From: Candidatus Thalassospirochaeta sargassi
GTDB taxonomy: Bacteria; Spirochaetota; Spirochaetia; UBA9216
DNA length: 64,000 nt
Assembly (NCBI GenBank): GCA_028532855.1
Contig: JAQQAL010000035.1
Span: 1 to 64,000 of the forward strand
Reading direction: 5' to 3'
Shown here: in pieces, positions 21,556 to 30,991 of the stretch
Numbering within the stretch: position 1 is the stretch's first letter
Layout of the letters: each line of letters opens with the position of its first letter
The notes under the pieces: generated by a model
Database searches by the model: none
What the model saw: only the letters and a program-made list of their open reading frames with translations
Told to the model about the DNA's origin: nothing
Position numbers and translations under genes: made by a program

Positions 21556-22407
21556 TTAATGCAGAATTATTACCCCCTCAGATTCAAGCTCTGAAATTAT
21601 ATCTAAATCCTGTAACGGATTCCCGTGCAGATCAGCAAATTTAAGTGCTGTCATATGTCTAAGAACAGAAATATCTTCTATGTCGTTATCCGACAAATCT
21701 ATAATCTCCAGAGAATGAAGCCCCGAAAGTATATCGATATCCCGAATAGCATTGCCTGATGCATACAGCTCCTCAAGCCCCGCAAGCTCCTGCAGGTCCC
21801 AGATATTTGAAACATCATTTCCGCTGATGTTAAGGATCCTGATATTTCGGCAGTATTCAATCCCGTCCAGATTATCAAGCTCCCGGAATGCAAGATCCAG
21901 TCCCCCGTCAAGCTGACCGAGATCAGCGGGTTCAATATGAAAATCATGATTTCCAAAAATAACATCCCTGACTGCATTGAGAAATCCGCCGTCGACCGAC
22001 AGATCTTCAAACACATCCTCATCCTCAAAATGCCCTTCATATTCATCAGCAACCGGAGCCGCCCATGTTTCGGTATGCTGATATTCAAATCGATTTGCCC
22101 TGAGCAATCGAGCTTCATTTTTCATTTCAAGAAGCTTTTTCAGACCGATCAGCCTGTCATAATCAGAATCAGACTTCGCTTTTTGAAAATCTTCCATCAA
22201 AGAAGAAAGCATATCAGGATGGATTTTCCGAATCAGGTTATAGAAGAGCTTCTTTAACTCCCCATCTGAAGATAGTCCCATTGCCTCAGAACATGCTCTG
22301 ATGGTCAGCTTATCACCGCTTCTATATGCATTTATAACAACTGCCGACGCAGCCTCAAGATGCTGCTTGTTCAGATTCTTTTCAATAAAATTGATTAGAT
22401 CTCTCAA
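21556..22407 (-). CDS. Leucine-rich repeat protein
   Basis: 283 residues, cytoplasmic with no signal peptide. The N-terminal about 120 residues are helical and include a stretch L-F-Y-N-L-I-R-K-I-H-P-D-M-L that faintly recalls a J-domain helix. The region from about 155 on contains four to five leucine-rich repeats of the bacterial 22-residue type (I-R-I-L-N-I-S-G-N-D-V-S-N-I, L-E-E-L-Y-A-S-G-N-A-I-R-D-I, L-E-I-I-D-L-S-D-N-D-I-E-D-I). Such domains bind other proteins; the partner is unknown. The start is a TTG overlapping the stop of the IclR gene (TTGA), so the two are translationally coupled. Confidence 0.75.
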   Translation of the reverse strand: MRDLINFIEKNLNKQHLEAASAVVINAYRSGDKLTIRACSEAMGLSSDGELKKLFYNLIRKIHPDMLSSLMEDFQKAKSDSDYDRLIGLKKLLEMKNEARLLRANRFEYQHTETWAAPVADEYEGHFEDEDVFEDLSVDGGFLNAVRDVIFGNHDFHIEPADLGQLDGGLDLAFRELDNLDGIEYCRNIRILNISGNDVSNIWDLQELAGLEELYASGNAIRDIDILSGLHSLEIIDLSDNDIEDISVLRHMTALKFADLHGNPLQDLDIISELESEGVIILH

Positions 22408-23207
22408 ATCCAGCCCAGCCTTCTGGACACAGCATCAGCGGTCTCTTTTACAAGCTGTCCGATATCATCTGATATCACATCAGTCTTTTTCACACTCCAG
22501 GCAGTTGATATAGCAGCAGCAATTCTTTTGCGGTAATCATAAACCGGCGCCCCCACGCAGCGAACCCCGGTTTGATGTTCTTCAAAATCCTCCGCCCAGC
22601 CCCTGCGTCGGAAGCTCTTTACTCTTCGAATCAGCTCATTTTGATCTACAACCGTCTTAGGGGTCAGCTTTTCAAGATTAATACGGCCAAACAAGGATTT
22701 CAACATTTCATCACTGTCATCAAAAAGAAGAGAACGTCCAAGTGATGTGCAGTAGATTGGCACACGGTTTCCTATAATGGAGTACCGTCTTAAACTGTTA
22801 AACTGCTCCACCTTATCAATGTAGACTACTTCACTACCCTCGCGGATAGCAAGAAAAACAGTCTGCCCCGTCTCATTGGAAAGATGTCTCAGAAAGGGCT
22901 CTGCTTCAGTCTTAAGCTCTATGCTGTTTAAAAGCTGACTTGAAAGATGGATAAATCCGATGCCCAGCTTATATTTCTTTTCACCCTGCTCAACATATCC
23001 TCTGTCCTGCATGGCATTCAGAATACGATGCACCGTCGATTTGTGAAGCCCGAGCTCTTCTGACAGATCGGTCAGCCGCTTACCTGAGCGGTTGAATGAC
23101 AGGCTCTCCAGAATATCAAAGGCTCTGTCGATTGATTGAACCGTTCCCGTTTTAACACCTTCTGTTCCGCTGTTCTTATTATCTTTTTCGCTGTTTTGTT
23201 TCGCCAT
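22404..23207 (-). CDS. IclR family transcriptional regulator
   Basis: 267 residues. After a lysine/serine-rich N-terminus, the IclR winged-helix domain (about 22-85, S-I-D-R-A-F-D-I-L-E-S-L and H-K-S-T-V-H-R-I-L-N) is followed by the effector-binding domain (R-E-G-S-E-V-V-Y-I-D-K, R-V-P-I-Y-C-T-S-L-G-R, G-V-R-C-V-G-A-P-V-Y-D-Y). It faces a KDG-kinase-type gene across 116 bases containing promoters for both and an inverted repeat. Control of that kinase, in the manner of KdgR, is the likely role. The ATG at 23207 has a -10 box ten bases upstream and no ribosome site. Confidence 0.88.
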   Translation of the reverse strand: MAKQNSEKDNKNSGTEGVKTGTVQSIDRAFDILESLSFNRSGKRLTDLSEELGLHKSTVHRILNAMQDRGYVEQGEKKYKLGIGFIHLSSQLLNSIELKTEAEPFLRHLSNETGQTVFLAIREGSEVVYIDKVEQFNSLRRYSIIGNRVPIYCTSLGRSLLFDDSDEMLKSLFGRINLEKLTPKTVVDQNELIRRVKSFRRRGWAEDFEEHQTGVRCVGAPVYDYRKRIAAAISTAWSVKKTDVISDDIGQLVKETADAVSRRLGWI

Positions 23208-25446: not shown

Positions 25447-25473
25447 AAAAGGCCGGACCTCTGCCGACCTTTT
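25447..25473. terminator. Terminator hairpin between convergent genes
   Basis: AAAAGG (25447-25452) pairs with CCTTTT (25468-25473), with an inner CGG/CCG after one mismatch. A run of A residues precedes it and T residues end it, so it can serve both the hydrolase and the opposite thioredoxin gene. Confidence 0.65.
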
Positions 25474-25533: not shown

Positions 25534-26187
25534 TCAGTTTAACGCACCTATATTCTGCTCAATAGCCGTTGTAAAACCCATTCTGAAATTCTCTCGATCC
25601 TCAGCGGTTATCTCCGGTCTGTCGTTCTCAAGATGTGCAATATAACTTTCCGGACCGCCTTCCCTGAAGCCGGTAGCAAGCAGAGGACTCAAATCGCTGT
25701 CTAAAAGCCATATGGAAGGATAGCCCTGAACACCCAGGAGCTGTGCAATAATCTGATTATGCATAACCTGCTCATCCGGTAAACTTATTCCATTTGGAAA
25801 GTCAAGAAACAGCAGTACAAGATTATCTTCTGCGTAGGACCTGAACTCAGGAGTAGTAAAAACCTGACTACTCAGCTTCCTGCACCATACACACCAGTCC
25901 GATCCAGTAAAATTTACAAGTATCTGCTTATCGCCGGCTTGTGCAAGGCTGTATGCCTCTCTTATATCTGTAACCCAGCCCTCAGGCGGATAATCTACCT
26001 CGAGGGCTGAATCCGTTTGTTCAGCTGATTCTGTAACCATTTTTTCTGACTCAGGCCCGGAAGACTTTACATCCAGAGTCTCCGGCTGTTCAGAATCGGC
26101 TGTACCGCGGGCACATGCTGTTGCAAGCCCCGTTAAAATCAGAATAACTATCATCAGTAAAACAATTTTTCGCATTTTCTTCTTCAT
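25534..26187 (-). CDS. Thioredoxin-like lipoprotein
   Basis: 217 residues. A lipoprotein signal (R-K-I-V-L-L-M-I-V-I-L-I-L-T-G-L-A-T-A-C, cysteine near residue 20) and an acidic linker lead to a thioredoxin-like domain with the redox motif W-C-V-W-C-R-K in the context N-F-T-G-S-D-W. The pattern matches the Thioredoxin_7/DUF953-like group seen in exported disulfide reductases (DsbD gamma-like or SoxW-like). It is probably anchored on the outer face of the cytoplasmic membrane, acting on disulfides there. The start at 26187 is chosen from the promoter: a -10 box lies six bases upstream and there is no ribosome site. It shares its promoter region with the divergent methyltransferase. Confidence 0.82.
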   Translation of the reverse strand: MKKKMRKIVLLMIVILILTGLATACARGTADSEQPETLDVKSSGPESEKMVTESAEQTDSALEVDYPPEGWVTDIREAYSLAQAGDKQILVNFTGSDWCVWCRKLSSQVFTTPEFRSYAEDNLVLLFLDFPNGISLPDEQVMHNQIIAQLLGVQGYPSIWLLDSDLSPLLATGFREGGPESYIAHLENDRPEITAEDRENFRMGFTTAIEQNIGALN

Positions 26188-26193
26188 TAGTAA

Positions 26194-26244
26194 AATATAA
26201 TGCGGCATTTCAATTTTGACAATATATATTTTATTTTATATACT
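26194..26244. promoter_or_regulatory. Back-to-back promoters with overlapping -35 boxes, both leaderless
   Basis: Plus strand: TTGACA (26216-26221), 17-base spacer, TATACT (26239-26244), six bases, ATG. Minus strand: TTGTCA (complement of 26217-26222), 17-base spacer, TATATT (complement of 26194-26199), six bases, ATG. The two -35 boxes share five base pairs, so polymerase could occupy only one at a time. Confidence 0.85.
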
Positions 26245-26250
26245 TGTATC

Positions 26251-26982
26251 ATGTATAACCTGCTTGCAAAACAATATTCAAAACTTTTTCCGCCTGATAA
26301 AAACAGATGTGGTTTCATTCTCGAGGAGTCCGGACTTAAATCCGGTTCCGAAGACCGCAGTCCGGCCGTTCTCGACGCCGGATGCGCAAACGGTGATCTG
26401 GCCTTTGAACTGGCCGATGCAGGATGCATGGTCACAGGAATCGACTTAAATGCTGATATGATAAAAATTGCTGAAAAACGGGCCGCTTCCCGGGGGCTTG
26501 ATAAACCGGTTTTTCTATGCCGCAGCATGACTGAACTTGGCGGTCTCGGCTCTTATAACATAATAACCTGTTTCGGAAATACTCTTCCCCATCTGCCCTC
26601 CGAAAAAATGGTCGGTGAATTTCTCCGGGAGTCAGCAGCAATCCTTGAAAAATCAGGCAGCTTAATATTCCAGATAATCAACTTCGATAAAATTGAAAAC
26701 AAGGAAATGTTTGAGTTCCAGGATATTAACACAGATAAGCAATTGTTCAAACGAAGTTACAAGCGGCTTCAGGATGGAAGATTTGATTTCAAAGTCAGTC
26801 TCACGGATCTACAAACAGGCGAACAGGTATCCGACAGCACCCCCCTGCTGGCGCTGTCAAAAAAGGCCCTTACCGACATGCTGGAAATCGCCGGGTTCAC
26901 TACTATCAATGTGTATAAGGATTATAGCGGTGAACCGGCAGACGGGACAGAGTTTGCAGCAATCTATTCTGCAAAAATATAG
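26251..26982 (+). CDS. Class I SAM-dependent methyltransferase
   Basis: 243 residues. Motif I reads V-L-D-A-G-C-A-N-G-D-L-A (about 43-54), followed by the acidic residue at the end of strand 2 (V-T-G-I-D-L-N-A-D-M-I), then I-I-T-C-F-G-N-T-L-P-H-L where the methyl acceptor site is usually formed. The family is the Methyltransf_11/25 type acting on small molecules; the acceptor is unknown. The start is ATG 26251, six bases after a consensus-like -10 box, with no ribosome site. A longer in-frame reading from 26200 would cross the whole promoter and is unlikely. Confidence 0.83.
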   Translation: MYNLLAKQYSKLFPPDKNRCGFILEESGLKSGSEDRSPAVLDAGCANGDLAFELADAGCMVTGIDLNADMIKIAEKRAASRGLDKPVFLCRSMTELGGLGSYNIITCFGNTLPHLPSEKMVGEFLRESAAILEKSGSLIFQIINFDKIENKEMFEFQDINTDKQLFKRSYKRLQDGRFDFKVSLTDLQTGEQVSDSTPLLALSKKALTDMLEIAGFTTINVYKDYSGEPADGTEFAAIYSAKI

Positions 26983-29294: not shown

Positions 29295-30089
29295 TTAGTT
29301 TTCACCGGGATCGTAACCGAACCGGCGTGATATCTGCATAGCGTAAACTTTAATACGCTCTCCAAACTGATTCTGTTTCTCTTCTCCCATTCTAAAGGCA
29401 GGCCCCGAACACCAGACTGCGGCTATAGGATAATTTCTGTAATCGAATACCGGAGCACCTACACAATGTATCTCCGAGATTTCTTCTCCATTATCAATTG
29501 CGAAACCGCGCTCCTTGACCTTTTCGAGTTCAGTGTTCATTTCACTTTGACTAGGGATTGTTCCGTTGGTAAAACGGGTAAAAGTAAGATGACTTAGCAG
29601 ATCAGCCCTCTCCATTTCAGGTAGATAGGCGGCAATAGCCTTGCCGGGAGCCGAGGTATGGATATTTACCCTGTGACCAATCTCGGTAGTAAACTTTATA
29701 TACTGAAATGACGGTAACTGTTCAATAATTACTATTTCGTTACCCAGTAAGGTTCCAAGCATTACAGTTTCGTTCAGTTCATCTCTAATAGAATGCATGA
29801 TATCAATTGAGTTTTCAGTTATACCGTTATTTCTCATTCCGGCATATCCGAGATAAAGAAGCCTGGGGGTAGCCTTATATTTCCGCTGAGTCTCTTCTAC
29901 ATAACCGTAATATTCAAGGGTGTTAAGTATTCTGAATACTGAGTTTTTAGGGTAGTCAAAATCGTCGGAAATTTCTGTGATACTTGCTTCATTTTTCACT
30001 TTGGCAAGATATTCAATAATTTTCAGAGCCCGTGCTATATTAGGTATAAGATATTTGTTTTTTTCCCGGTCCAGTTCAAAATCATCCAT
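29295..30089 (-). CDS. IclR family regulator, first of two paralogues
   Basis: 264 residues when started at ATG 30089, the same length as its neighbour. The winged-helix domain opens Y-L-I-P-N-I-A-R-A-L-K-I-I-E-Y-L and contains Y-P-K-N-S-V-F-R-I-L-N. The effector domain carries H-T-S-A-P-G-K-A-I-A and H-C-V-G-A-P-V-F-D-Y-R-N-Y-P. It is clearly homologous to the 30197-30991 protein along its whole length, which points to a local duplication. It probably controls genes of the sugar cluster upstream. The start at 30089 is six codons inside the longest reading and is favoured by the -10 box position. Confidence 0.85.
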   Translation of the reverse strand: MDDFELDREKNKYLIPNIARALKIIEYLAKVKNEASITEISDDFDYPKNSVFRILNTLEYYGYVEETQRKYKATPRLLYLGYAGMRNNGITENSIDIMHSIRDELNETVMLGTLLGNEIVIIEQLPSFQYIKFTTEIGHRVNIHTSAPGKAIAAYLPEMERADLLSHLTFTRFTNGTIPSQSEMNTELEKVKERGFAIDNGEEISEIHCVGAPVFDYRNYPIAAVWCSGPAFRMGEEKQNQFGERIKVYAMQISRRFGYDPGEN

Positions 30090-30099
30090 AATGTAGATT

Positions 30100-30128
30100 A
30101 TTATCACGTTAGATTTTTAAATAGTCAA
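30100..30128 (-). promoter_or_regulatory. Promoter of the first IclR paralogue
   Basis: On the minus strand TTGACT (complement of 30123-30128) and GATAAT (complement of 30100-30105) are 17 bases apart. The ATG lies ten bases after the -10 box, so the leader is about three bases and holds no ribosome site. Confidence 0.65.
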
Positions 30129-30196
30129 TACAGGGTGTACTTTTTTCTACATATAGATTTATAAAGAACGTTTTTCAATATGCTACAGCACAAAAG

Positions 30197-30991
30197 TCAG
30201 AGGCTCTGCTTTTTCAGGATTTGGTCATCCTGCCCCAGACGCTTTGATATTTTTGAGGCTGCAGCAATTACGGCGTCCCCAATAGTTTCTATCCCTTTGC
30301 TTTTCACCCTGTAATCAGGGCCTGTCATCCAGACGGAAGCAACGGGATAGTTTCTATAATCGAGAATAGGCGCCGCTACACAGATAATGCCTGTTATCTC
30401 TTCACCATTATCAACCGAGTATCCTGATGTTCTGATTTCCTCTATCTCATCCAGCATATCACTCTGACTCGGGATAGTTTTATCATTAAACCGCTCAAAA
30501 CTCAGATGATCAATCACCGCCTGTTTTTCTGTTTCAGGCATATAAGCAAGAATCGCCTTGCCGGGAGCCGAGGCATGAACAGGAACCCTGTGTCCTATTT
30601 CAATTGTAAACTTGATGTACTCGAACGATGGCAACTGCTCAATAATTACAACCTCGTTTGAAACCATCGTTCCTATCATTATTGTTTCATTTATTTCATC
30701 CCGAAGGATATGCATTACATCAACAGAGTTCTGCACCAGGCCTTTCTTGCTTAATCCGGCATAGCCGAGGTAGAGCAGCCGCGGAGTAGTAAAATATCTG
30801 CGGTTTTCTTCCTCAACATAGCCGTAAGCCTCAAGACTTTTTATTATACGGAATGTACTGTTCACAGGAATATCGAAGCGGGCCGCAATCTCCGAGATTG
30901 AAGCCCCCTTCTCCAGCTTTGCAAGCAGCTCAAGGATCTTAAGCGCCCGTGCTATGTTTGGAATTATATATCGTTCAGCTTTAGCGCTCAT
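30197..30991 (-). CDS. IclR family regulator, second paralogue
   Basis: 264 residues. The DNA-binding domain begins Y-I-I-P-N-I-A-R-A-L-K-I-L-E-L-L and includes I-P-V-N-S-T-F-R-I-I-K. The effector domain has V-H-A-S-A-P-G-K-A-I-L-A-Y and V-A-A-P-I-L-D-Y-R-N-Y-P. The gene follows the sugar permease on the same strand after 22 bases and has its own GGGAGA ribosome site, so it is probably the last gene of the FGGY kinase-ABC transporter operon and its likely regulator. It and the next regulator are close paralogues with different specificity residues in the effector domain. Confidence 0.88.
   Translation of the reverse strand: MSAKAERYIIPNIARALKILELLAKLEKGASISEIAARFDIPVNSTFRIIKSLEAYGYVEEENRRYFTTPRLLYLGYAGLSKKGLVQNSVDVMHILRDEINETIMIGTMVSNEVVIIEQLPSFEYIKFTIEIGHRVPVHASAPGKAILAYMPETEKQAVIDHLSFERFNDKTIPSQSDMLDEIEEIRTSGYSVDNGEEITGIICVAAPILDYRNYPVASVWMTGPDYRVKSKGIETIGDAVIAAASKISKRLGQDDQILKKQSL

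What the first reader, a model, noticed from the sequence alone, without database searches (positions are those of the whole stretch)
26194..26251. Two leaderless divergent genes share overlapping -35 boxes
TTGACA on the plus strand (26216-26221) and TTGTCA on the minus strand (26217-26222) share five base pairs. Each has a 17-base spacer, a -10 box and an ATG six bases later. The whole 63-base interval between the two start codons is promoter. The two genes cannot be transcribed from these sites at the same moment, so their expression is physically linked.
Basis: seen in the sequence. Interest (0 to 1): 0.65.

Follow-up and report, generated by a model that had tools for sequence, protein, structure and literature searches.

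The report
Two genes sharing one promoter box
Two neighbouring spirochaete genes that point away from each other appear to start from one shared promoter box, with no untranslated leader on either message, and the same compact layout recurs on other gene pairs across the spirochaete class, most strikingly beside the signal peptidase gene.

Summary
Chance expectation is ~0 (0/100 shuffles). The genome is a spirochaete; roughly 5% of its ORFs carry a -10 box exactly 6 nt before ATG, so leaderless starts are ordinary there. A same-genus species with only 51%/58% identical proteins keeps both promoters, both 6-nt gaps, the 63-bp interval and a 20-nt identical run over the shared box. In a third species the methyltransferase has moved away and its half of the box has decayed. 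The same layout fused on TTGWCAA occurs in 18 of 297 class genomes (reversed-pattern control: 0), on at least ten gene pairs; half of the fetched GTDB hits are spirochaetes. At the divergent signal peptidase/PEGA-like pair, found by protein homology rather than motif, TTGACAA lies between the starts in 30/30 loci of one family and 25/30 class-wide, including this genome's own copy. So the box is real, conserved and recurrent. That the two genes' expression is therefore 'linked' is only inferred: mutual exclusion of polymerase is likely, its effect on output untested. No transcript ends have been mapped.

The parts
26216..26222 (.). fused -35 box TTGACAA: reads TTGACA on + (26216-26221) and TTGTCA on - (26222-26217)
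   Evidence: identical in G001
26239..26244 (+). -10 box TATACT for the methyltransferase gene, 17-nt spacer, 6 nt before ATG
   Evidence: TATAAT at the same place in G001
26194..26199 (-). -10 box TATATT for the thioredoxin-like gene, 17-nt spacer, 6 nt before ATG
   Evidence: TATATT with a 6-nt gap also in G001, G002 and G003
26251..26982 (+). class I SAM-dependent methyltransferase, 243 aa, predicted leaderless
   Evidence: Methyltransf_25, E=9.6e-16
25534..26187 (-). thioredoxin-fold lipoprotein (Thioredoxin_7), 217 aa, predicted leaderless
   Evidence: PF13899, E=7.3e-11; signal peptide with a LATAC lipobox read from the sequence
26188..26250 (.). 63-bp interval between the start codons; 43/63 identical to G001, with a 20-nt identical run over the fused box
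25447..25473 (-). terminator-like hairpin plus T-run downstream of the thioredoxin-like gene

Best explanation
The 63-bp interval is a fused, back-to-back double promoter. One 7-bp near-palindrome, TTGACAA, is read by housekeeping sigma region 4 as the -35 box of both genes (TTGACA one way, TTGTCA the other). Each direction has its own -10 box 17 bp away and an ATG 6 nt further, so both mRNAs begin at or within about 2 nt of their start codon and are translated as leaderless messages. Only one polymerase can sit on the shared box at a time, so initiations in the two directions alternate rather than overlap. Shown: the sequence, its geometry, its conservation in a second species, and the recurrence of the layout on other gene pairs across the class. 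Inferred: sigma recognition, leaderless transcription, mutual exclusion. Likelihoods: real fused promoter serving both genes ~0.8; measurable competition between the two directions ~0.45.
For: Exact geometry, ~0 expected. G001, with proteins 51% and 58% identical, keeps the 63-bp interval, both 6-nt gaps, TTGACAA and both -10s, while the discriminators next to the ATGs have diverged (2/6 and 0/6 identical). In SD-less ORFs of this genome TANNNT lies exactly 6 nt before the first ATG in 24 of 157, against about 5 at other offsets. The full pattern occurs in 18 of 297 class genomes (21 sites), 0 for the reversed pattern; nearly every fetched site lies between two genuine divergent ORFs. In GTDB, 40 of the 80 fetched hits are spirochaetes and 36 of those 40 have long or open ORFs from both ATGs, against 14 of 40 elsewhere. 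At the divergent signal peptidase/PEGA-like pair, found by protein homology, TTGACAA lies between the starts in 30 of 30 family f9 loci, with poorly conserved spacers and conserved -10s on both sides, and in 25 of 30 class-wide loci including this genome's own copy, 13 of them with a matching -10 and start on both sides. The seventh base, needed only by the second direction, is A in all of these but in 13 of 26 one-directional leaderless TTGACA promoters. Thioredoxin-like relatives outside the genus look Shine-Dalgarno-led, so the leaderless form goes with the packed layout.
Against: No transcript ends are available for this organism or any close relative. Within the genus only G000 and G001 keep both promoters; in G003 the methyltransferase start lies 154 bp away and its half of the box reads TTCAAC. 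The thioredoxin-like gene has a second in-frame ATG four codons in, so its true start could be there. Part of the 48/48 count comes from loci fetched with a motif that already requires the seventh A; the homology-derived sets (30/30 and 25/30) were not chosen by motif, though my scan looked for TTG-N-CAA in them.
Confidence: 0.8

Rival explanations
1. Real but neutral packing: two leaderless promoters share a -35 because TTGACA followed by A already supplies TTGTCA on the other strand, so a second promoter evolves cheaply there. There is no regulatory coupling worth the name. (This shares the fused promoter with the best explanation and differs only on coupling.)
For: Sequence economy: one extra base makes the second box. 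The other fused form TTGCAA also recurs (11 of 297 genomes). G003 separated the genes without losing either. E. coli bidirectional promoters compete little at basal strength (PMC12825309).
Against: Near-invariance of TTGACAA at the signal peptidase locus across many families points to maintained use of the fused form, though not necessarily to coupling.
Confidence: 0.45
2. TTGWCAA is an operator: a regulator binds the near-palindrome and controls both genes; the -35 resemblance is secondary.
For: TTGWCAA is palindromic about its centre, and the element is highly conserved at the signal peptidase locus.
Against: It sits 16-17 bp from a -10 on both sides in loci with unrelated genes; seven bases are short for a bacterial operator; there are no flanking conserved half-sites.
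Confidence: 0.08
3. The boxes are chance resemblances in AT-rich DNA; transcription starts elsewhere.
For: The interval is AT-rich and other weak promoter-like sites overlap it.
Against: Expected count ~0, conservation in G001, class-wide recurrence with a zero control.
Confidence: 0.05

Closest known systems
Bacterial bidirectional promoters sharing a -10 element (Warman, Grainger and colleagues; PMC12825309, PMC10268837)
   Same: One pseudo-symmetric core promoter element serves divergent transcription; polymerase binding in one direction excludes the other.
   Different: There the -10 is shared and starts lie 7-25 bp apart (mostly 18 bp). Here the -35 is shared, the -10s are separate, and predicted starts are about 64 bp apart.
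Leaderless genes with a -10 next to the start codon (Leptospira interrogans TSS map PMC5243855; Deinococcus-Thermus PMC12340547; survey PMC3160421)
   Same: -10 box directly upstream of ATG, no Shine-Dalgarno. Leptospira has about 440 mRNAs with leaders under 10 nt.
   Different: Those describe single genes; here two leaderless genes are packed head to head on one -35.
Classical back-to-back divergent promoters (from general knowledge; not tested here)
   Same: Divergent genes with adjacent or overlapping promoters.
   Different: I found no paper in the searched library that describes a fused -35 with both genes leaderless.

Membership tests
sigma70-type promoter (both strands) | -35 and -10 hexamers near consensus with a 16-18 bp spacer | tested here: met
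   11/12 and 10/12 matches, spacers 17
sigma70-type promoter (both strands) | transcription starts about 7 nt after the -10 | not testable with these tools
   no RNA data
Leaderless gene | -10 box 5-8 nt upstream of the start codon and no Shine-Dalgarno | tested here: met
   6 nt on both sides; the commonest gap in this genome
Leaderless gene | mapped 5' end at the start codon | not testable with these tools
   no RNA data
Bidirectional promoter of the shared -10 kind | shared -10 element, starts usually 18 bp apart | tested here: not met
   -10 boxes are 39 bp apart and separate; the shared element is the -35
Fused -35 double-leaderless layout (the kind described here) | TTGWCAA with a -10 16 bp away on each side and ATG 6 nt beyond each | tested here: met
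   window, G001 and other class loci

The most novel reading that the evidence does not exclude
Fused -35, head-to-head, double-leaderless promoters are an old and recurrent promoter type of the class Spirochaetia, kept on the signal peptidase/PEGA-like pair across most sampled families and evolved again on other pairs such as this one, and they force polymerase to choose one direction per initiation, tying the ratio of the two gene products to the -10 boxes alone.
Probability: 0.4. Interest if true: 0.72.

Novelty: new variant of a known kind. Interest (0 to 1): 0.57.

Why it matters
Shared-element bidirectional promoters have been described mainly for the -10. A fused -35 serving two leaderless genes would be about the most compact way to start two protein genes, and its conservation beside the signal peptidase gene across a class makes it testable in culturable, non-pathogenic spirochaetes. 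It also warns gene finders: both start codons here are easily mis-called upstream, inside the promoter.

Tried and rejected
The first genome-contig scan with the methyltransferase found nothing. A DNA alignment of the four genus members misaligned G002/G003; the promoters were compared by position from the start codon instead. Non-overlapping spacings (0-30 bp between boxes) were tested: about 111 sites over 31 spacings, ~3.6 per spacing, against 21 sites at the fused spacing and 11 at the TTGCAA spacing; orthologues inflate all of these, and after collapsing by eye it is roughly 12 independent loci against about 2 per spacing. I do not take this as proof of selection on its own, because one good -35 gives most of the other for free in the fused spacing. 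The 2021 Nature Microbiology paper on bidirectional promoters is not held.

Full report
What was checked. On + TTGACA 26216-26221, 17 nt, TATACT 26239-26244, 6 nt, ATG 26251. On - TTGTCA 26222-26217, 17 nt, TATATT 26199-26194, 6 nt, ATG 26187. The half pattern TTGNCAA-N16-TANNNT-N6-ATG occurs twice in the 64-kb window, at these two places only, with 0.03 expected. The complete double pattern is absent from 100 shuffles even with two mismatches.

The genes. + is a class I SAM methyltransferase, - is a thioredoxin-fold protein with a signal peptide and lipobox. Longer in-frame ATGs exist on both sides (26200 on +, 26208 on -), but they lie inside the promoter, overlap each other, and the homologues in other genomes align from 26251 and near 26187. 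I see no evidence of a functional link between the two products.

Is leaderless plausible here? In 443 kb of this genome (window plus L047-L066) I called 338 ORFs crudely. In the 157 without a Shine-Dalgarno near the first ATGs, a TANNNT lies exactly 6 nt before the first ATG in 24, against about 5 at other offsets; the most common spacer is 17. So roughly 5% of ORFs look leaderless by this geometry. In a related spirochaete class, Leptospira, about 440 mRNAs with leaders under 10 nt were mapped experimentally (PMC5243855).

Relatives. Genus mates were found by protein. The interval is 43/63 identical, with a 20-nt identical run over the fused box; composition shuffles never reach this (0/20000), while the 6-nt discriminators are 2/6 and 0/6 identical. 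G003 keeps the thioredoxin side (TTGTTG-17-TATATT-6-ATG), but its methyltransferase starts 154 bp away from a new promoter-like TTGGAT-16-TATAAT, and the old methyltransferase half reads TTCAAC. G002 keeps the thioredoxin side (TTGTCC-17-TATATT-6-ATG); no methyltransferase was found and the contig ends nearby. G004 is cut by a contig end. Thioredoxin-like relatives in other genera (G006, G031, G051) have Shine-Dalgarno-like sequences before their starts. So the fused layout at this gene pair is known only within this genus, retained in two of the three members in which both genes are seen side by side.

The layout is not unique. I searched 297 genomes of the class for CAT-N6-ANNNTA-N16-TTGWCAA-N16-TANNNT-N6-ATG. 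There were 21 sites in 18 genomes and none for the reversed pattern in the same genomes. Almost all of the fetched sites lie between two real divergent ORFs: signal peptidase I/PEGA-like protein, endonuclease IV-like/M16-like peptidase, RelA_SpoT-domain protein/DUF192 lipoprotein, secA/lipoprotein, coaD/lipoprotein and others; five of these proteins were checked with Pfam, the other names are my reading of the sequences. A scan of GTDB r220 gave 96 stretches; of the 80 fetched, 40 are spirochaetes by title, a minor phylum (from general knowledge about 1% of GTDB species), and 36 of these 40 have long or open ORFs from both ATGs, against 14 of 40 elsewhere. Elusimicrobia and Melainabacteria contribute two further recurring pairs.

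A test without motif bias. I took the PEGA-like partner (Pfam: FGE-sulfatase domain, PF03781) of signal peptidase (Peptidase_S26, PF10502) and fetched its homologues by protein (33-51% identity). In family f9, TTGACAA lies between the two starts in 30 of 30 loci, with -10 boxes conserved 16-17 bp away on both sides and spacers nearly random. My gene-start parser confirmed the fused spacing on both sides automatically in 15 of 30; the rest failed on start choice or gap limits, not on the box. Across 60 relatives spanning the class, 25 of 30 fetched loci carry the fused box between the two genes, 24 of them with a matching -10 and start on at least one side and 13 on both, including the window's own genome (G000:C52, L250), G001 and G004. 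In several families the interval is longer (72-96 bp), so one gene there may have a short leader. The base after TTGACA, which only the second direction needs, is A in every one of these, but in 13 of 26 one-directional leaderless promoters.

How it most likely works. Sigma region 4 can dock on TTGACAA in either orientation. Each docking selects one -10 and starts RNA at, or within a couple of bases of, that side's ATG. Two holoenzymes cannot occupy the box together, so initiation alternates. Whether this couples expression depends on occupancy: with shared -10 promoters in E. coli, basal competition was slight and became clear when one side was strengthened (PMC12825309). For this locus I therefore hold 'real fused promoter' at about 0.8 and 'measurable coupling' at about 0.45.

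Known or new. Shared-element bidirectional promoters are known for the -10 (PMC12825309, PMC10268837) and leaderless genes are known; a fused -35 serving two leaderless genes as a recurrent promoter type of spirochaetes was not found in my searches, which cover open-licence papers only. I rate it a new variant of a known kind.

Noticed in passing
G000:C52 (L250), also L211-L244 and L259: Divergent signal peptidase I and PEGA-like/FGE-sulfatase-domain genes share a fused TTGACAA box across most sampled families of the class.
   Followed up: yes
L067-L071 (family f12, genus g14): A RelA_SpoT-domain gene and a DUF192 lipoprotein gene share a conserved fused TTGWCAA box in five species.
   Followed up: partly
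G017, G060, G086, G106, G116, G125: A second fused form with TTGCAA as both -35 boxes is conserved at one locus in six genus g14 genomes.
   Followed up: no
L119/L190 (Elusimicrobia) and L125/L178/L194 (Melainabacteria-like): Outside spirochaetes, two gene pairs recur with the fused box. L125 is titled Fusobacterium but has the Melainabacteria pair, so its label may be wrong.
   Followed up: no
L133, L142, L170: Cave metagenome records titled Borreliella garinii and Treponema denticola look mislabelled; L133 and L170 match contigs of G043, a 3.4-Mb genome, far larger than a Borreliella chromosome.
   Followed up: no
window 26200 (+) and 26208 (-): In-frame upstream ATGs would let gene finders extend both genes into the shared promoter, giving overlapping false N-termini.
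   Followed up: partly
window 29295-30991 (-): Two similar IclR-family regulator genes lie in tandem (family named from sequence likeness to the IclR gene at 22404-23207).
   Followed up: no
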